Shown here: positions 33,041 through 62,239 of the stretch, one piece after another
How the letters are laid out: each line of letters opens with the position of its first letter
Numbering within the stretch: position 1 is the stretch's first letter
From: Coriobacteriia bacterium
Lineage (GTDB): Bacteria > Actinomycetota > Coriobacteriia > Anaerosomatales > JAAXUF01
Direction of reading: 5' to 3'
Assembly: GCA_013336165.1 (NCBI GenBank)
Contig: JAAXUF010000004.1
Coordinates: forward strand, 124,001 to 188,000
DNA: 64,000 nucleotides
Translations under genes and position numbers: made by a program
The notes under the pieces: model-generated
Told to the model about the DNA's origin: nothing
Seen by the model: only the letters and a program-made list of their open reading frames with translations
Database searches by the model: none

Positions 33041-33108
33041 GAGACAACAATACCGCGAAAGCGCATGCAGTCGCCCCGTGCCGGGACGAAAGCGATGCTT
33101 CCGCGGTA
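33041..33108 (-). terminator. intrinsic terminator of the T-box leader
   Basis: TACCGCGGAAGC (33108-33097) pairs over 12 positions, with one G-U, with GCTTTCGCGGTA (33062-33051). It is followed directly by TTGTTGTCTC. The left arm is part of the T-box, so it is mutually exclusive with the antiterminator, the standard transcriptional T-box arrangement. A smaller GTCCCG/CGGGGC-type stem fills the loop. Confidence 0.88.
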
Positions 33109-33381
33109 CCACCCCGCTTGGCGTCTGGATCCTCTCGTCGACAACGATGTCGCGATTGGCAGACGCCCACTCGTACGGCAGGTAACGGATGCCACCGACC
33201 CGATCTACTTGGCCCGCCAGTCTAACGAAGGTCGTCCGCGTACGGCTGGAGGCTGTTCTTCCGGGTGGCTCAGGGGTGAGATTTCGAAGCGTCCCGCGCC
33301 GGGCTTCCACCAATGCCCGGCTCTCTGGAGAGGGATTAGCCCCTACTGTCCCCGTCAGCGCCATTCTTGCTGTTCGGTTAG
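33041..33381 (-). promoter_or_regulatory. T-box riboswitch leader of the ilv-leu operon, Ile specifier
   Basis: Minus-strand leader with the T-box hallmarks in order. AGTA is at 33347-33344, AGAGAG at 33326-33321, and the distal-loop GTGGAA at 33310-33305. GAA at 33285-33283 is followed by ATC at 33282-33280, then the T-box GGGTGGTACCGCG at 33114-33102. GGGGC after AGTA can pair with GCTTC before GAA, and GGGG (33353-33350) with CCCC (33276-33273). This frames a specifier loop in which ATC (isoleucine) is the codon; the overlapping CTC (Leu) is the alternative. Uncharged tRNA-Ile would relieve termination before ilvD. Confidence 0.93.
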
Positions 33382-54744: not shown

Positions 54745-57700
54745 TCAGTCGGCGAGAGGATCCACCAGGGGCGTTTGCGGCCGTGCCTCCATCGCCAAGA
54801 TCGCGCTATAAAGAGCGCATGTCTCCGCCGAGGGATCCAGACCAAGTTCATCCGAGAGCCTGTCTCGGCACTGTAGATAGGTATCGATCGCCGAACTTCT
54901 TTGTCCTGCCGCTATCTGACATCGCAGCGCGCTTTGGTAGAGATCCTCCCTGTACTGGTCGCACTGGATCGCACGGCGAACGAACACGAGGGCGTTGGCA
55001 GGGTCGTCCCGGCTGACCAGAAGCTGAGCGGCACGCTGCATCGCATCCACGAACTCGGTTCGGTAGTGCTCCCTCAGATTCGCGAACCAGTCGTCATAGC
55101 AATCGCCGGGAAGCAAGTCTCCTCGGTAGATGTCGCCGATTCTCTCGTAGGCGCGCAGAGCCGCCTTGGCATCGTTGGCGGCTTCAGCCTCACGGGCGCG
55201 CTGAAGGCTCTCCTCGAAGTCGTCGACATCAGACCTAACACGGTCGCGCACGATTCTGCAGACGCCTCCTACACTCTCAACGTAGGCGCTCGGCTTGTTC
55301 TTGTCGGCGCCGCCCCCAAGAGTAGTCTTCATCGTGCTCCAAATGACATACAGGTTGCTGACAGCCCGCTCCTCCTCCATCTCGGGCCAGAGGTGTTCGC
55401 AGATCTGATCCCGTGGGATGTCATGGCCGCGGCGAACCACAAGCATTGTGAACAGAAGTCTTGCCTTGCGCTTCTTCCAGTCCCGCTCCCGGATGGTGTT
55501 TCCGCCGATACTGACCTCAAGACCTCCAAACAGGCGGACATGGCACAGCGGCAGCCCGCCCCGGGCAAGCAGATTCCTGAACTCAGACTCGCCGAGAAGC
55601 CGAAGGCCCAGCTGCTCCCACGTGGCGTCATCCAAGAAACATCGAGATTCCAGCAGGATCCTCTCGGCGTGTTCAGGCGGGATCATGCGCAGCATATGTG
55701 ATGGCAGACACTTCGAACCAACCGCCAACGCGAACATGCCGAGCAACGCCGGGAAAGCACGGCAATACATCGCGATCTGCCAATTAGGGTTCTCGGATAG
55801 CACATAGTCGCGATGCGTCGCCAGGCGCGCTACGGCAGCGTCAAGCTCACCGTCGCGCCTTTCGATCTCGGCGAGGATCATATCTGCGCGCAGAGCGTGA
55901 TACCGGTTGCCTTGAAAGCCATTCGCTGCCACAGACTCCGTCCAGGCACGGGCAGCAGAGGGATCCCCCAGAGCGAGAAGGGATGCTGCGACCTCTAGGG
56001 CGGCGAGTCGCCTGTACGCCATGTAGTCCGACATCGACAGATGCTCAAATGCGCGCTCCGCCTCAATGAGTGACTCGTCTAGATCGCCTGCGGCACGCAA
56101 GATACTCGCAAGATACACTCGCGCTGAAGCGACGTCCGGCTCATCCCCTGACTGAATCGCTATGCGTATTGCCTCTCTGAACCAGCCGATCGCCTCAGGT
56201 ATCGCTCCTCTCGCCGCGAGAGCACAACCGAGCGCCGGATAGAACGCCATCGCAAATAGATCGAGCTTGTTGCGCTCGATATCTTGGACGACCGCTCGAA
56301 GAAGAGCCTCACATCGATCCAACCGTCCAGTTTCCGCCAACGCGACGGCCACATTGCCGCGTACCGTTACCCTAGAGCTCAATAGCCCCTGTTTCTCGCC
56401 TATCAGCGGGCCTAGAATGCGGACTGTAGAGTTGAAATCTCCGAAAGCGAGGGCGGAAACGATTGAGGATGCTTCTATCGCCTCTCGGACTACTCGTCGC
56501 GGTCCCGGAAAGTCCGCGCCTGAGACAACTTCGTTTGCCTGATCCAGGAATGCCTTTGCCTCAACCATCTCGCCGTGAATGATCCTGTTGTAGCCAAGAC
56601 AGACCAGAGTCTGGGCCAGTAGGGCCTTGTCGTCCTCGACATGATGGGAGGCGAGTATCTCCTCTGCGAACGCCTTTGCCTCGTCCTTTCGGTTGAGCTG
56701 TCGCAAGTAAACCAGAGATAGCGCCAGCGCCTCCCTGACCACATCAACATCGCCATCGTGCTCTGCAAGCAACTTCGCAGCCCGACATCGCGACAGAGCG
56801 TCCTCGACATTCCCCATCTCAGCATTGAGCTCAGCCCAGAGCACCAAGAGCTTTGGTTGCGCCATCATAGAGGCAACTGGGATCGCATCTACCAACCTGG
56901 CCAGTGAAGTGTAGTTCCCCGCGCCCAAGGCCTCTTCGCCGTGCAGATCAAGCCATTCTTGGATACGTGGAATATCTCGCATGCGGAGCAGTAGTTCTGC
57001 TGCCCGCGCATAATCGAGTCGATTCGTTAGCAAAGTAACCGCACTTGTGACGACCACAGAATCTGGGTGAAGCACGCCCTTCTCTTGTCGCTCCGCAAAG
57101 AAGTCGTCAACCAAATCGTGAACTCGGAACTCGCAGCGAGAATCGTGAGTCTTGGTCATCTTGAAGAGGGGTAATACTGAAGCCAACCGATTAGCGATCA
57201 CTGTTGTGTTCGGAACATCGAGTGCATCAAGATCTTGCCCATCACCTGACCTCAGCAATGTAGTGCGAAACAGAATGTCCCGTTCTGAAGCAGTCAGTTC
57301 GGAGTAGATCAAGCGCTCTAGCCAGGCGTTAAGCGGCACAGTACGCATCGCGCTCCAGTTTGCGCCGTGAATCAGGGCTTGGCTTGACAGGACCGTGAAG
57401 AAGGCAAGGTGGCCGCCGCACGCTTCATGCAATGCCGGTGCCTCGCTGGCAAGCATGTCCATACCGAGTGCATGCAGCATTTCTTGCGCCTCCGAGAGCG
57501 TAAGCCCAAGTTCATCTGGCCCGACTAGACCGGATTCGCAGAGGACCTTTGGAGGCCAGTTGTCAAGCTGTCTCGTTGTGACAATCAGCTGGGAGGCACA
57601 GCGCCATAGAGCCTTGCCTATTGCGCCAATCTCACAGACTAAATTGGAGTCTGGGACTCTCCCCAAGTCGTCAAGCACGACGCAGAGGTTGCCCGCCAGG

Positions 57701-58044
57701 GATTCCGATCTTAGGCAACGGACAACCGCGTCAAGCAAGTCGGGCAGTGCTAATTCCTCCGAAAACAAGGGCGCCGCCAGATTGGCCTCGGCGCATCCAC
57801 ATTCTTTCAGGATTATTCCTGCTAGCCTCTTGGCAGGAATGCATTCGCCGCCAGCGTCAATCCAGATGACTTGCGATCTTGCGCTCGAAACGTACTGAGC
57901 GGCCACCACGGATTTGCCTGAGCCCGAAGGTCCATAAATGACGCAGGGTCGCCCTCCGAGGTTCGATACCGCACGTACTAGACGTCCCCTGTCCAGCACT
58001 GCGCCAAAATCCGGCACAGCACGACCCCCTACTACGGCACACAT
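54745..58044 (-). CDS. STAND ATPase-TPR transcription regulator with OmpR-like and BTAD domains
   Basis: A 1099-aa cytoplasmic regulator. A P-loop module holds Walker A GPSGSGKS (38-45) and Walker B CVVLDD (121-126), as in MalT/AfsR-type STAND switches. A long helical TPR-like middle (about 330-800) follows. A winged-helix DNA-binding domain begins near residue 834 (CHVRLFGGLEVSIGG, WKKRKARLLFTMLV), then a BTAD domain to the C-terminus (about 940-1088, DELGLDPSAET). STAND proteins oligomerise on ligand and ATP binding; the TPR part usually senses the ligand. The ATG at 58044 has GGAGG 5 bases upstream. Confidence 0.9.
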   Translation of the reverse strand: MCAVVGGRAVPDFGAVLDRGRLVRAVSNLGGRPCVIYGPSGSGKSVVAAQYVSSARSQVIWIDAGGECIPAKRLAGIILKECGCAEANLAAPLFSEELALPDLLDAVVRCLRSESLAGNLCVVLDDLGRVPDSNLVCEIGAIGKALWRCASQLIVTTRQLDNWPPKVLCESGLVGPDELGLTLSEAQEMLHALGMDMLASEAPALHEACGGHLAFFTVLSSQALIHGANWSAMRTVPLNAWLERLIYSELTASERDILFRTTLLRSGDGQDLDALDVPNTTVIANRLASVLPLFKMTKTHDSRCEFRVHDLVDDFFAERQEKGVLHPDSVVVTSAVTLLTNRLDYARAAELLLRMRDIPRIQEWLDLHGEEALGAGNYTSLARLVDAIPVASMMAQPKLLVLWAELNAEMGNVEDALSRCRAAKLLAEHDGDVDVVREALALSLVYLRQLNRKDEAKAFAEEILASHHVEDDKALLAQTLVCLGYNRIIHGEMVEAKAFLDQANEVVSGADFPGPRRVVREAIEASSIVSALAFGDFNSTVRILGPLIGEKQGLLSSRVTVRGNVAVALAETGRLDRCEALLRAVVQDIERNKLDLFAMAFYPALGCALAARGAIPEAIGWFREAIRIAIQSGDEPDVASARVYLASILRAAGDLDESLIEAERAFEHLSMSDYMAYRRLAALEVAASLLALGDPSAARAWTESVAANGFQGNRYHALRADMILAEIERRDGELDAAVARLATHRDYVLSENPNWQIAMYCRAFPALLGMFALAVGSKCLPSHMLRMIPPEHAERILLESRCFLDDATWEQLGLRLLGESEFRNLLARGGLPLCHVRLFGGLEVSIGGNTIRERDWKKRKARLLFTMLVVRRGHDIPRDQICEHLWPEMEEERAVSNLYVIWSTMKTTLGGGADKNKPSAYVESVGGVCRIVRDRVRSDVDDFEESLQRAREAEAANDAKAALRAYERIGDIYRGDLLPGDCYDDWFANLREHYRTEFVDAMQRAAQLLVSRDDPANALVFVRRAIQCDQYREDLYQSALRCQIAAGQRSSAIDTYLQCRDRLSDELGLDPSAETCALYSAILAMEARPQTPLVDPLAD

Positions 58045-58092
58045 GTGTACCTCCAAGAATGCGGGCGAGGGGTGCCGGCGGATAGATAGTCA

Positions 58093-58122
58093 CTTGTACA
58101 ACAAACTCGAGATTCAGTTCAA
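58093..58122 (-). promoter_or_regulatory. possible promoter of the STAND/BTAD regulator gene
   Basis: TTGAAC (58122-58117) and TACAAG (58098-58093) are 18 bases apart on the minus strand. The predicted start near 58086 would be about 42 bases before the ATG. The -10 region overlaps a TTGTACAA palindrome. The regulator could also be reached by readthrough from the DUF5317 gene, which ends at 58127. Confidence 0.4.
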
Positions 58123-58126
58123 GCGA

Positions 58127-58690
58127 TTACGCGAGTTTGCGCGGATCCTGCTCGCGAGATCCCAAGGTTCCACGCAGTATCACTATCAAGACACCAACCA
58201 CCAACAGGACGTCACCAACGCTGTAGAAGAACCAATGTCCCATCACATGGAGAGGCATAGCGTCGGCGAGCCACGTCAGGATACTCATGTTGCCGGCTAG
58301 GTGGTAGAACCCCAAGCTTGAGCCGATAGCATCTCCGACGACAGAAGCGTTCAGATCTCGGACCCAACCCAATTCCACTGGCATGCCCGAGTTGAGCAGT
58401 ACCACATCAATATTCAACGCCATGCCTATTGCAGCGATTGCCAAACCAGGTTGCCGCCAATTCGCAAGAAGGACTGCGACAAGGATTGCTGATGCGGCTA
58501 TCCACACCGCCAACCCGAGAGTCTGAGATCCCACAATCCCAAACAGTCTCCCGCGTGCCGCACCCTGCACAACGAAGAGAGAAACGACTAGCCACTCCCA
58601 TCGGAGCCTCAGCTTGGACAAATTCCGCAGTGAACCCCCCGAGGCAATACCTAGCAGAAGGCCAAACGCCGTAGCATACAGGGCGAGCAT
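58127..58690 (-). CDS. DUF5317 family membrane protein
   Basis: A 187-aa integral membrane protein with five to six helices. The conserved part includes GIASGGSLRNLSKLRLRWEWL at the N-terminus (split after SGGSL), LNIDVVLLNSGMPV in the middle and MPLHVMGHWFFYSVGDVLLV near the end. DUF5317 has no assigned function; members are frequently next to HD or HD-GYP proteins in actinobacteria. The ATG overlaps the upstream stop by one base (TGATG), so it is translationally coupled to the degenerate HD protein. Confidence 0.85.
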   Translation of the reverse strand: MLALYATAFGLLLGIASGGSLRNLSKLRLRWEWLVVSLFVVQGAARGRLFGIVGSQTLGLAVWIAASAILVAVLLANWRQPGLAIAAIGMALNIDVVLLNSGMPVELGWVRDLNASVVGDAIGSSLGFYHLAGNMSILTWLADAMPLHVMGHWFFYSVGDVLLVVGVLIVILRGTLGSREQDPRKLA

Positions 58691-59844
58691 CAGCGAATCG
58701 CCGGCACTTTGAAACCCAGTGCCAATGCGGCACCGACGACCTGAGCTTTGCCTTGCGCACTAATGATTGGGGCAACGACATCGACGGCTGGCGCCGAGTG
58801 AGCAGCCCAGACTCCTTCGTCCTCTGCTGCATCTGCATCACTGGCGATTGCCACGACAAGTGCGGCCAGCTTCTGGCTTTCTGTAACATCTCGCGACGGA
58901 TTACCATCACACACTTCCAGAATGGGAAGCACGTCCGCGAAGAACTCCACCCCACGGATCACCTCAGATGACTTGCCGCGCCTCAAGTTCGGGCTCCCTT
59001 GCTCGTCGCAAGCATGATGTCCGGCATCTGCGCTGATGGCGTCGATATCGTGCAACAGAGCGGCGTAGCTCACGGCTTCTAGCTGCGAGGCCGACAGGCC
59101 CAGGCTGCCTCCAATCGCTCTGGCGACTGCGGCGGTCCGTTCAGCGTGCCCGAGCCGACGCTCATCTTGACTTTCCGCAGCCTCAACGAGCACCTCAACA
59201 GTAGTCCGATACGTCTCGCGGATGTCAAGGAGAAGCGTATACGATTGCCTCATCAGCAACAGAAGCGCAACCACAGGAATGACGCTCCAAGGCCCCATCC
59301 CCTGATATATCAACAGAAACAGAACTGCCCCAGACCATTGTGCAATGAGCAACGGAGCTTGGGTTCGCAGGTTCCCGGTCAAGAGCCGACCGAATCCTCT
59401 TCCGCTCTTCTCGGCGGAGACAATCTGCCCCGTCACCAGTTCTACAGAGAGGAACACGGCAGGCACCAGAATGGCCGACGCCAGACCGGCCCAATCAGCC
59501 TGCCACGCGCTCAACGGAGCCAACACGATGAGCGAAGCAGTGATCGCGGCGGCTCGTGCGATGAATCGGCCGACTATGCCATCATGCCGCCGCTTCTTCC
59601 AACGGATTACGACCGCAAGAACCATCGCCACGAAGCAAGCGGAGATCGCTCCGAGGGGGCCAAGAACGATCAGTCCCGCGGCGCACAGAGCTCCACCAAC
59701 ACTAATGCTATCGCCACGAGGAAGTGGAATGTCGAAAGTGTCGAGTAGAACAAGAGCCGAGAAGATCGTCACCGCGTATTGCCACCATGCAATACCCCAC
59801 AGCGGGACAATCAGCATTCCCGAAACCTCAGTTAGAAGTCCCAT
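58690..59844 (-). CDS. membrane protein with degenerate HD-GYP domain
   Basis: 384 aa. The N-terminal half (to about residue 205) has six to seven transmembrane helices. The C-terminal half aligns with HD-GYP domains: LGHAERTAAVARAIG (231-245) and AALLHDIDAI with H265-D266. The later metal ligands are missing, because where the neighbour has VGKHHERFGGGGYP this protein has PILEVCDGNPSR. It is probably catalytically impaired or inactive and may act as a regulatory partner. It starts three bases after the intact HD-GYP gene ends and overlaps the DUF5317 start. Confidence 0.85.
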   Translation of the reverse strand: MGLLTEVSGMLIVPLWGIAWWQYAVTIFSALVLLDTFDIPLPRGDSISVGGALCAAGLIVLGPLGAISACFVAMVLAVVIRWKKRRHDGIVGRFIARAAAITASLIVLAPLSAWQADWAGLASAILVPAVFLSVELVTGQIVSAEKSGRGFGRLLTGNLRTQAPLLIAQWSGAVLFLLIYQGMGPWSVIPVVALLLLMRQSYTLLLDIRETYRTTVEVLVEAAESQDERRLGHAERTAAVARAIGGSLGLSASQLEAVSYAALLHDIDAISADAGHHACDEQGSPNLRRGKSSEVIRGVEFFADVLPILEVCDGNPSRDVTESQKLAALVVAIASDADAAEDEGVWAAHSAPAVDVVAPIISAQGKAQVVGAALALGFKVPAIR

Positions 59845-59847
59845 CGT

Positions 59848-61185
59848 CTACGACTCCCCTACTTCCAGTTGCTGTGGACTCCGCGTGGCTTCGACCTGCG
59901 ATTCGGAGGTTCCCAGACTGTCTACTACGTGTCCCTCAATGAATGCCTCAACGACCACGGGGTCGAATTGTGTGCCTTTGCCCTTGACAAGTTCCGAGAC
60001 CGCAACCTCTCTACTCAGGGCCGGGCGATAGGCACGAGTGGTCGTCATCGCATCATAGCTATCCGCAACCGCCAATATCCGCGCAATCAGAGGTATTTCC
60101 GGAGCCGAAATGGCCTCGGGATAACCACCCCCGCCAAATCGTTCATGGTGTTTTCCCACGTAATCCGCAAGATCTGACAGCGGCGGTATTCTCCGAATCA
60201 TCTCAGCCCCACGCGATGGGTGCAGTTGTATGGATCGGTACTCATCATCATCAAGCGCTCCCGGTTTCGTGAGAACACATCCGGGCACCGCGAGTTTCCC
60301 GAGGTCATGCAATAGCGCCGCATACTCTAGACGCTCCTGAGTTCGAGAATCCAACTTCAGCGTATGCCCGAGTGCCACCGAATAGTCAGCCACCCGCTCC
60401 GAGTGACCCCGTGTATAGGAGTCTTTTGCTTCAAGTGCCCCGATGAGCGATCTCACTGTGTCAGCATAGGCCCCTTTCAGGGTGGTGTAGCGCTGGTACA
60501 ACTGCTGGGCGAACAGTAGTGGGAACGCGAATAACGGAAGCGCAAGAATGTTGATTGCAAGCACTTGAGCCATCAGGAATCCAACAAACGCTAGAGCGAT
60601 TTGTGTAGGCACAAAGACATACATAGACGAAAACACGTCCGAGAACTGGCCCTTGCTGAAGGTGGCAATTCCGGCGCTCACGAGTACCAGGTTGACTACG
60701 CACGCCAGAAGAGCGGCTCCTATCATCCCGTACAGCGCAGGAGGAAAGTCCGCGCGGACCAGAACGCGAAAGAGACTGGGCGACGTGGCCAGAACATGAC
60801 CACCAAGCAGCGTGTAGGCCCATCCTCCGAGGCAAGCCCATAGTACGCCTTGCGTGAAGTTGAACAGAAGAACTAGCGGCGGCCTTCGCCGTTCAATTCC
60901 CGTAATGACGACAGCAGATGCGACGGCGACCAGTGATGAAGCCGCGGGACCACCAAGGACAATCGCGCACATCACCAGAGGATAGGTGAGCGATACTGTG
61001 AATACAGGAAGCTTCGAGGCGAAGAACTCGAGAGTGGCCGCGGCAACGGCGACAAGCGCAATCTGAACCGACCACACCGGCGGGTATACAAGCCAAGATT
61101 CACTCAGCACAAGCAAACATGTCGCGGTCACAAACGCGACTAAGATGAGAAAAGGACGAGGGGTATTCGGCCATGTGTCTGCCAT
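59848..61185 (-). CDS. membrane HD-GYP phosphodiesterase
   Basis: 445 aa. About eight hydrophobic helices (residues ~12-230) form a MASE-like sensor, followed by an intact HD-GYP domain. DSYTRGHSERVADYS (255-269), the HD pair H293-D294, HHE at 346-348 and the GYP signature at 354-356 are all present. HD-GYP enzymes degrade cyclic di-GMP or related dinucleotides with a di- or tri-iron site. The ATG has GAGGGGTAAGG upstream. It follows the micropeptide gene by 51 bases. The N-terminal sensor has no family name I recognise. Confidence 0.92.
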   Translation of the reverse strand: MADTWPNTPRPFLILVAFVTATCLLVLSESWLVYPPVWSVQIALVAVAAATLEFFASKLPVFTVSLTYPLVMCAIVLGGPAASSLVAVASAVVITGIERRRPPLVLLFNFTQGVLWACLGGWAYTLLGGHVLATSPSLFRVLVRADFPPALYGMIGAALLACVVNLVLVSAGIATFSKGQFSDVFSSMYVFVPTQIALAFVGFLMAQVLAINILALPLFAFPLLFAQQLYQRYTTLKGAYADTVRSLIGALEAKDSYTRGHSERVADYSVALGHTLKLDSRTQERLEYAALLHDLGKLAVPGCVLTKPGALDDDEYRSIQLHPSRGAEMIRRIPPLSDLADYVGKHHERFGGGGYPEAISAPEIPLIARILAVADSYDAMTTTRAYRPALSREVAVSELVKGKGTQFDPVVVEAFIEGHVVDSLGTSESQVEATRSPQQLEVGES

Positions 61186-61236
61186 CGCCTTACCCCTCGC
61201 CCCCTCTCAAAAACATGGACCGGGCCGGTAGAGCAA

Positions 61237-61311
61237 CTACATACGGAAACCCGCACCGCCGGCAAGAACGACGGCAGCAAGAGACGCGAGAACCAGAATC
61301 ATGCGCTTCAT
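61237..61311 (-). CDS. 24-residue hydrophobic micropeptide
   Basis: A complete small open frame, ATG at 61311 to TAG at 61237. The peptide begins MKRMILVL, has a hydrophobic core of Ala, Val and Leu, and ends GGAGFRM. AGGGGG lies 10 bases upstream of the ATG. The pattern is that of a signal peptide or a single-pass membrane microprotein. It lies between two genes of one apparent operon, directly ahead of the HD-GYP gene. Support is the good ribosome binding site, the signal-like composition and the context. I have no homology evidence, so it remains a prediction. Confidence 0.55.
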   Translation of the reverse strand: MKRMILVLASLAAVVLAGGAGFRM

Positions 61312-61315
61312 GGTA

Positions 61316-61350
61316 AGAAGACCCCCTTCGTGGAACTGGTGTGGTCTTCT
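61316..61350 (-). promoter_or_regulatory. hairpin overlapping the micropeptide ribosome binding site
   Basis: AGAAGACC (61350-61343, minus strand) is perfectly complementary to GGTCTTCT (61323-61316). The loop is 19 bases and the stem ends 4 bases before the micropeptide ATG. The G-rich ribosome binding site (61327-61322) sits at the loop/stem junction, so folding could limit translation. Confidence 0.45.
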
Positions 61351-61448
61351 CCCATCTCGCTCGTGATGGAAGAACGCTGTCCGCTCCGCTCATTGGTGTG
61401 CTGACAGTGTTCGAAAATCGGTTCACGGCGCCGGTCCAAACTGGAAAT

Positions 61449-62132
61449 CTATTTGGTTGTCAGAAAGCCCATCCGTCGGTTGATCGCATCAAGCGTCGCC
61501 TTAACGATCGCGTCGTTTTCATTCTGACGAACGAGTGCTGACCCACAGAATGTACGTTCACCAAACCCGCTGACCAAAGCAATGCAAGAGACCGCGACTC
61601 TCTCTCGTCCCATCTGCACGATGGAGACGTCTTCCAACGCGAAGGAGACCGTGTCTTCGGTATATTGGCTTACGGCGTCCAAAGCCGCGAGCGCCACTTG
61701 GCGCAACCGACCCGTCTGACTTGCAGGACCATCTGCTGTGCCCACATACTCGGTGCCGCAGATGTCGAGCGTGACCGCCGCCGAAGCCTGAACGCCGCTG
61801 ATGCTCGCCTGGATTTCGGTGATGCGAGGACGTTCGGCGCGAAGTTGGGGCTCTGCGGCCACAGTCTCTTCCTCGATGGGCCTCAGGGCCTCCCGGCCAA
61901 GCATCGCAATCGAGATCTTCTTGTGATCGACAGGGATCCCAAATTGCGCCATGAGCGTAGACTCAATATCGCGAACGAGTTGCTTGGGCTGTTTGCTCGG
62001 CGAGGCCAGGACGTGGATCTCCTGGATGACACCATCGGGAGAGGCGACTATGCGGGCAGCCTTGATATCGCCGACCTCCGCAAGCGCAGCTTCGATTTCC
62101 TCGACCCTTACTGGAGATACGCTCTGGTCCAC
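61449..62132 (-). CDS. conserved-looking protein of unknown function, two alpha/beta modules
   Basis: About 227 aa, soluble, with no signal peptide or membrane helix in the chosen frame. The N-terminal module (VEEIEAALAEVGDIKAARIV, then IQEIHVLASPSKQPKQLVRD) and the C-terminal module (VSFALEDVSIVQMGRERVAV, then DAIVKATLDAINRRMGFL) are separated by a charged linker rich in Glu and Pro. The second resembles the fold pattern of the LeuA regulatory domain, as an impression only. The GTG at 62132 has AGGGAG 7 bases upstream; a GTG at 62177 would add 15 hydrophobic residues. It is the first gene after the promoter at 62210-62239. Confidence 0.75.
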   Translation of the reverse strand: MDQSVSPVRVEEIEAALAEVGDIKAARIVASPDGVIQEIHVLASPSKQPKQLVRDIESTLMAQFGIPVDHKKISIAMLGREALRPIEEETVAAEPQLRAERPRITEIQASISGVQASAAVTLDICGTEYVGTADGPASQTGRLRQVALAALDAVSQYTEDTVSFALEDVSIVQMGRERVAVSCIALVSGFGERTFCGSALVRQNENDAIVKATLDAINRRMGFLTTK

Positions 62133-62209
62133 TCGGGAGCTCCCTGCTACGACGTATGCTGCTGCCCCACTGACCACATCTGCGCGGAATGCGCGCGCTT
62201 CTTCCCAGT

Positions 62210-62239
62210 ACTCTAGGTGCTACGCAAGAGTAGTGTCAA
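62210..62239 (-). promoter_or_regulatory. promoter of the HD-GYP/micropeptide operon
   Basis: TTGACA (62239-62234) is a perfect -35 box, with TAGAGT (62215-62210) 18 bases downstream on the minus strand. Transcription would start near 62203, about 70 bases before the GTG at 62132. Confidence 0.72.

What the first reader, a model, noticed from the sequence alone, without database searches (positions are those of the whole stretch)
54745..62239. Candidate signalling system: micropeptide, two HD-GYP membrane proteins, DUF5317 and a STAND/TPR/BTAD regulator
Six same-strand genes follow a strong promoter: an unknown two-module protein, a 24-aa hydrophobic peptide, an intact membrane HD-GYP enzyme, a membrane HD-GYP with lost ligands, DUF5317 and a large STAND regulator. 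Stops and starts touch or overlap for three of them. A secreted or membrane peptide, two paired membrane receptors (one active, one dead) and a cytoplasmic TPR regulator would be a coherent sensing pathway. The peptide as ligand and the links to the regulator are my inference.
Basis: partly seen in the sequence, partly recalled or inferred. Interest (0 to 1): 0.75.

Follow-up and report, generated by a model that had tools for sequence, protein, structure and literature searches.

The report
RNA-switched micropeptide beside paired HD-GYP receptors
A tiny 24-amino-acid membrane or signal peptide, made from an RNA that appears able to hide or expose its own start site, has been kept for a very long time next to a pair of membrane receptors (one active, one dead) that destroy a bacterial messenger molecule; neither the RNA nor the peptide matched any described family that I could search.

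Summary
All six genes are present; the promoter, the 1-nt overlap and the active/dead HD-GYP pair are confirmed and conserved across one bacterial order. The 24-aa peptide is real: it occurs in 40 of 40 checkable loci of the order, in 17 loci of other classes at the same place, and in at least four lineages where the upstream gene is divergent. It evolves as protein (pN/pS 0.34 in frame; 1.2 and 4.4 out of frame). It sits in a new structured RNA: an outer helix closes leader plus ORF (8 of 13 pairs with double changes), and inside, two mutually exclusive helices share a strand, one of them hiding the ribosome-binding site. No Rfam family matches. The membrane half of the active HD-GYP folds like vitamin-binding ECF S components; the upstream protein resembles the LeuA regulatory domain. 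Most likely an RNA switch gates a micropeptide that works with the paired receptors. Ligand, export and target are untested.

The parts
62210..62239 (-). promoter TTGACA-18-TAGAGT upstream of the two-module gene
   Evidence: conserved (>=9/12) in 34 of 40 relatives, 0.9% of random windows
61449..62132 (-). two-module protein: N-terminal alpha-beta-beta-alpha-beta module, then a (beta-beta-beta-alpha)x2 module with the fold of the LeuA regulatory domain (also dsRBD-like)
   Evidence: AF2 pLDDT 86.5; PDB 3hps/1sr9 E about 1.6e-6
61426..61438 (-). 5' strand of outer helix P0 of the leader RNA
61377..61412 (-). helix P1 (GAAC/CUGUC ... GACAG) with the conserved AGCGGAGCGG stretch (61381-61390)
61347..61374 (-). 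hairpin P2 (UUCUUCCAUC / GAUGGGAGAA) with the conserved (U)AGCG(G/A) loop
61310..61355 (-). alternative helix P3 (AUGGGAGAAGACC / GGUCUUCUUACCAU): pairs with part of the Shine-Dalgarno (GGGGG 61322-61326) and the start codon; shares its 5' strand with P2
61237..61311 (-). 24-aa micropeptide MKRMILVLASLAAVVLAGGAGFRM
61216..61228 (-). 3' strand of outer helix P0, between peptide stop and HD-GYP start
59848..61185 (-). membrane HD-GYP, intact catalytic residues; membrane domain folds like an ECF-transporter S component
58690..59844 (-). second membrane HD protein, degenerate catalytic half (conserved pseudoenzyme)
58127..58690 (-). DUF5317 membrane protein
54745..58056 (-). STAND ATPase / TPR / BTAD regulator; order-specific neighbour, not part of the core set

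Best explanation
The core is an old cassette of the phylum: a bistable leader RNA, a micropeptide of 24-29 residues, and a pair of membrane receptors (active and dead HD-GYP), usually with DUF5317 and next to the LeuA-regulatory-like protein. Shown by comparison: in one fold of the RNA (P3) the ribosome-binding site and often the start codon of the peptide are paired; in the other (P2) they are free; P0 closes leader and ORF into one domain. Inferred: a signal (small molecule, the neighbouring two-module protein, or processing of P0) moves the RNA from P3 to P2 and turns peptide synthesis on. Inferred: the peptide goes into the membrane like a signal peptide (two basic residues, about 14 hydrophobic residues, Gly-Gly-Ala, then a basic 3-6-residue tail outside) and, whole or as its released tail, acts on the S-component-like membrane domains of the HD-GYP pair, changing breakdown of cyclic di-GMP.
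For: Gene order hpf-two-peptide-HDGYP-HD2-DUF5317/STAND-secA across the order; peptide in 40 of 40 complete loci, in 17 loci of other classes without STAND, and upstream of HD-GYP in four lineages where the two-module gene is divergent. Coding constraint pN/pS 0.34 against 1.21 and 4.44. P0: 87.5% of cells paired against 24-42% when slid, 8 of 13 pairs with double changes, 45 cells against 14.3 shuffled. Swap tests over 21 lineages: P2, P3 and P0 each 0 of 20,000 permutations as good, control strand pair 10,813 of 20,000. P2 and P3 share at least 3 nt in 61 of 61 sequences. RNA model: 54 genomes of the order, none outside it in the class, one copy in the own genome. 60 peptides, none with an acidic residue, 59 with K/R in the tail. 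HD-GYP membrane domain like RibU/ThiT/FolT/BioY. 13 GGDEF domains in the genome.
Against: No ligand, no expression data, no proof of export or of peptide-receptor contact. P3 is weak in two lineages (L108, L118). The S-component match is by fold only (E 0.004 to 0.2). Five of ten distant divergent loci keep the AGCG(G/A)AGCG stretch but show no recognisable peptide. Permutation tests ignore phylogeny.
Confidence: 0.5

Rival explanations
1. The peptide is a cis-acting leader ORF: its translation or stalling in the leader sets expression of the downstream HD-GYP genes, and the product itself does nothing.
For: It lies in the leader just upstream of HD-GYP in every lineage that has it and P0 ends between its stop and the next gene.
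Against: The amino-acid sequence is constrained at the protein level with one composition pattern across classes; no codon run typical of attenuators; HD-GYP starts 51 nt after the peptide stop with purine-rich sequence of its own upstream; no terminator found in the leader.
Confidence: 0.2
2. A type I toxin-like mRNA: a hydrophobic membrane-damaging peptide kept silent by 5'-3' pairing and a Shine-Dalgarno hairpin.
For: Same architecture of small hydrophobic peptide, long-distance 5'-3' pairing and hidden ribosome-binding site as AapA1 and hok (PMC8167048).
Against: Mostly single copy, fixed place and intact in every checked relative of an order and in other classes, unlike patchy toxin modules; it sits inside an operon; no antisense sigma-70-like promoter was seen.
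Confidence: 0.07
3. One reading: the exported peptide or its fragment is a pheromone that enters the cell and binds the TPR part of the STAND/BTAD regulator.
For: STAND gene lies in the same cluster through the order; small exported peptides sensed by TPR regulators are a known theme (general knowledge).
Against: Peptide, RNA and HD-GYP pair persist in other classes with no STAND gene in the cluster.
Confidence: 0.08
4. The micropeptide serves the neighbouring translation/secretion genes (hpf, secA) rather than the HD-GYP pair, for instance as a secretion monitor.
For: The cluster lies between hpf and secA in the order and several other classes.
Against: In divergent lineages the peptide stays with HD-GYP while hpf and secA are not adjacent; several genes and about 7 kb lie between peptide and secA in the window.
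Confidence: 0.05

Closest known systems
Type I toxin mRNAs (AapA1, hok)
   Same: small hydrophobic peptide; 5'-3' long-range helix; ribosome-binding site hidden in a hairpin
   Different: fixed chromosomal place in a signalling operon across classes; no antisense RNA known; no sign of patchy distribution
Translational riboswitches
   Same: conserved motifs (AGCGGAGCGG, UAGCGG loop) followed by two mutually exclusive helices, one hiding the start site
   Different: no Rfam family matches; ligand unknown; controls a micropeptide rather than an enzyme or transporter; the 3' closing strand lies after the ORF
Short hydrophobic peptide and Phr-type pheromones
   Same: basic N-terminus, hydrophobic core, small residues, short C-terminal tail; tiny gene beside a signalling gene
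   Different: no significant family match (NCBIfam PhrK E 0.11 only); neighbours are HD-GYP membrane receptors, not Rgg/Rap; export untested
HD-GYP cyclic di-GMP phosphodiesterases (PA4781, DvhD, PmGH)
   Same: full metal-binding set and GYP motif in the first protein
   Different: membrane domain with ECF S-component-like fold; constant neighbour is a degenerate copy
raiA RNA (RF03072)
   Same: structured RNA beside hpf/raiA in relatives of this locus
   Different: a different RNA at a different place (near hpf); the leader described here does not match it

Membership tests
HD-GYP phosphodiesterase | metal ligands H, HD, H, HH, D and GYP motif in 59848-61185 | tested here: met
   45 of 45 orthologues keep them (third residue of GYP varies); Pfam HD_5 133 bits
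HD-GYP phosphodiesterase | same ligands in the second protein 58690-59844 | tested here: not met
   D375 kept in 1 of 46, H347 in 8, GYP mostly deleted
Translational riboswitch | two conserved, mutually exclusive helices, one hiding the start site | tested here: met
Translational riboswitch | direct binding of a ligand by the RNA | not testable with these tools
   needs in-line probing or SHAPE
Known Rfam RNA families (cyclic di-GMP riboswitches, raiA and others) | covariance-model match at the leader | tested here: not met
   no match at the leader up to E 5 in the window; none at the leader in relatives at gathering threshold
CsrA-controlled leader | CsrA encoded in the genome | tested here: not met
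   no PF02599 match in the own genome
Type I toxin-antitoxin | antisense RNA antitoxin | tested here: inconclusive
   no sigma-70-like antisense promoter over the leader; RNA-seq needed
Type I toxin-antitoxin | long-range 5'-3' pairing and hidden ribosome-binding site | tested here: met
RRNPP-type peptide quorum sensing with the STAND protein as receptor | peptide gene co-occurs with its TPR regulator | tested here: not met
   no STAND gene in the cluster in other classes
Exported pheromone | processing and secretion of the peptide | not testable with these tools
   needs mass spectrometry
DUF5317 | Pfam gathering score | tested here: met
   59.5 bits against 25

The most novel reading that the evidence does not exclude
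A new class of riboswitch whose regulated product is a micropeptide, and the micropeptide (or its 3-6-residue tail) is the natural ligand or subunit of a new kind of receptor: ECF S-component-like membrane sensors built as an active/dead HD-GYP pair, so that an RNA-sensed signal is turned into a cyclic di-GMP change through a peptide.
Probability: 0.22. Interest if true: 0.92.

Novelty: new variant of a known kind. Interest (0 to 1): 0.78.

Why it matters
It adds one new conserved structured RNA with a built-in switch, one micropeptide family conserved across bacterial classes, and one paired receptor architecture, all at the same locus, so each gives a handle on the others. HD-GYP receptors mostly lack known input signals; here a candidate input is encoded 51 bases upstream. 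The ligand of the RNA and the target of the peptide can be tested directly.

Tried and rejected
CsrA binding to the GGA motifs of the leader: the genome has no CsrA. Known RNA family: no Rfam hit at the leader. Transcription attenuation: no U-run terminator after P3. P0 as a local palindromic operator rather than a helix: in the window the half-site TTGGACCGG is not palindromic yet still matches its distant partner, and double changes follow the pairing. A joint multiple alignment of all lineages was poor, so swap tests were used for P2 and P3 instead. No paper found on DUF5317, on HD-GYP in this class, or on HD-GYP with S components (open-access library only).

Full report
What is there. Pfam confirms HD-GYP, DUF5317 and AAA/TPR/BTAD; the second HD protein only reaches sub-threshold HD scores. 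The window lies in a 2.0-Mb genome, G000:C4.

Conservation within the order. DUF5317 is found in 51 of 298 genomes of the class, all of them in the window's order. I fetched 48 loci around these genes. Most keep hpf-two-HDGYP-HD2-DUF5317/STAND-secA, with DUF5317 and STAND swapped in some. The promoter upstream of the first gene is conserved in 34 of 40. The first HD protein keeps all catalytic residues in 45 of 45; the second is a conserved degenerate copy.

The peptide. Every locus of the order with both flanking genes that I could check (40 of 40, window included) has a 24-26-residue ORF of the form MKR-(hydrophobic)-SLAALVL-GGGA-xx(K/R)x between the two-module gene and HD-GYP, with a good ribosome-binding site. 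In frame, pN/pS is 0.34; in the shifted frames 1.21 and 4.44. A profile of the two-module protein found relatives in other classes (76 of 396 genomes of the phylum). Seventeen fetched loci there, with enough sequence, carry the peptide too, for instance MKARLYLLLTTLASLLLAGGAWKLR and MKTRIIVLLSSLAALVLGGGAGWRW; several of these are near-identical sister species, so they represent fewer independent lineages. In further lineages the two-module gene is divergent from HD-GYP; at least four of them keep the peptide upstream of HD-GYP. In all, 60 complete peptides of 24-29 residues: none has an acidic residue, 59 have a basic residue in the short tail after Gly-Gly-Ala. This looks like an N-in signal peptide or a very short membrane segment; export is inference.

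The RNA. The leader of the peptide is strongly conserved: AGCGGAGCGG, a hairpin with a UAGCGG loop, and a GGUCUUCUC strand that contains part of the ribosome-binding site. Consensus folding of 40 sequences gives an outer helix P0 that closes leader and ORF, an inner P1, and P3 over the ribosome-binding site. P0: 87.5% of cells paired against 24-42% for slid partners, 8 of 13 pairs with changes on both sides, 45 double-change cells against 14.3 in shuffles, covariation score 0.302 against 0.180 (sd 0.011). Across 21 lineages the strands pair better with their own partner than with those of other lineages for P2, P3 and P0 (0 of 20,000 permutations each), while the control strand pair shows nothing (10,813 of 20,000). 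These permutations do not correct for relatedness. P2 and P3 compete for the same strand in 61 of 61 sequences (at least 3 nt; 5 or more in 55), and P3 pairs ribosome-binding-site bases in 47 and start-codon bases in 39. In the window the minimum-energy fold is P0 + P1 + P3, the hidden state, -89.4 kcal/mol, z -2.06. The model finds one copy in the own genome, 54 genomes of the order and none elsewhere in the class. No Rfam family matches.

The proteins. The AlphaFold2 model of the two-module protein (pLDDT 86.5) matches the regulatory domain of M. tuberculosis LeuA best and double-stranded-RNA-binding domains next, so a small-molecule or RNA-binding role is possible; neither is shown. The HD-GYP model (pLDDT 88.4) has, besides the HD-GYP domain, a membrane domain matching ECF transporter S components (RibU, ThiT, FolT, BioY; probability near 1.0, target TM 0.5-0.66). 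Such a domain would be a receptor for a small ligand (inference). The genome has 13 GGDEF domains, so cyclic di-GMP signalling is present.

Reading. The core is leader RNA + micropeptide + HD-GYP pair; DUF5317 and the two-module gene are frequent partners; STAND was seen in the cluster only in this order. The RNA most likely gates peptide synthesis by switching between P3 and P2; the peptide most likely works with the receptor pair. The first step rests on strong comparative evidence, the second on genomic association only. The nearest working analogues are translational riboswitches and type I toxin mRNAs with long-distance pairing (PMC8167048); membership in either is unproven, and the known-family tests that could be run were negative or incomplete.

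Limits. Joint alignment of all lineages was poor. Literature coverage is open-access only.

Noticed in passing
L103:12635-12812, L108:9571-9830, L116:3171-3428, L120:5465-5691: raiA RNA (RF03072, 137-172 bits) lies near hpf in relatives of other classes, close to this cassette, but not in the window.
   Followed up: partly
window 33079-33367 (-): T-box leader just above its gathering score (93.9 against 93 bits).
   Followed up: no
L039, L045, L047, L052, L053, L059, L067: DUF5317 and STAND genes are in swapped order in part of the order's largest family.
   Followed up: no
genomes G075, G085, G111, G115, G117: Two matches of the leader RNA model instead of one; paralogue, assembly duplicate or contamination not resolved.
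   Followed up: no
L060:13183-15450: A second, diverged STAND-like gene directly after the first one.
   Followed up: no
L124, L125, L126, L129, L132 upstream of HD-GYP: An AGCG(G/A)AGCG stretch persists although no peptide ORF was recognisable; perhaps the RNA outlived or preceded the peptide there.
   Followed up: partly
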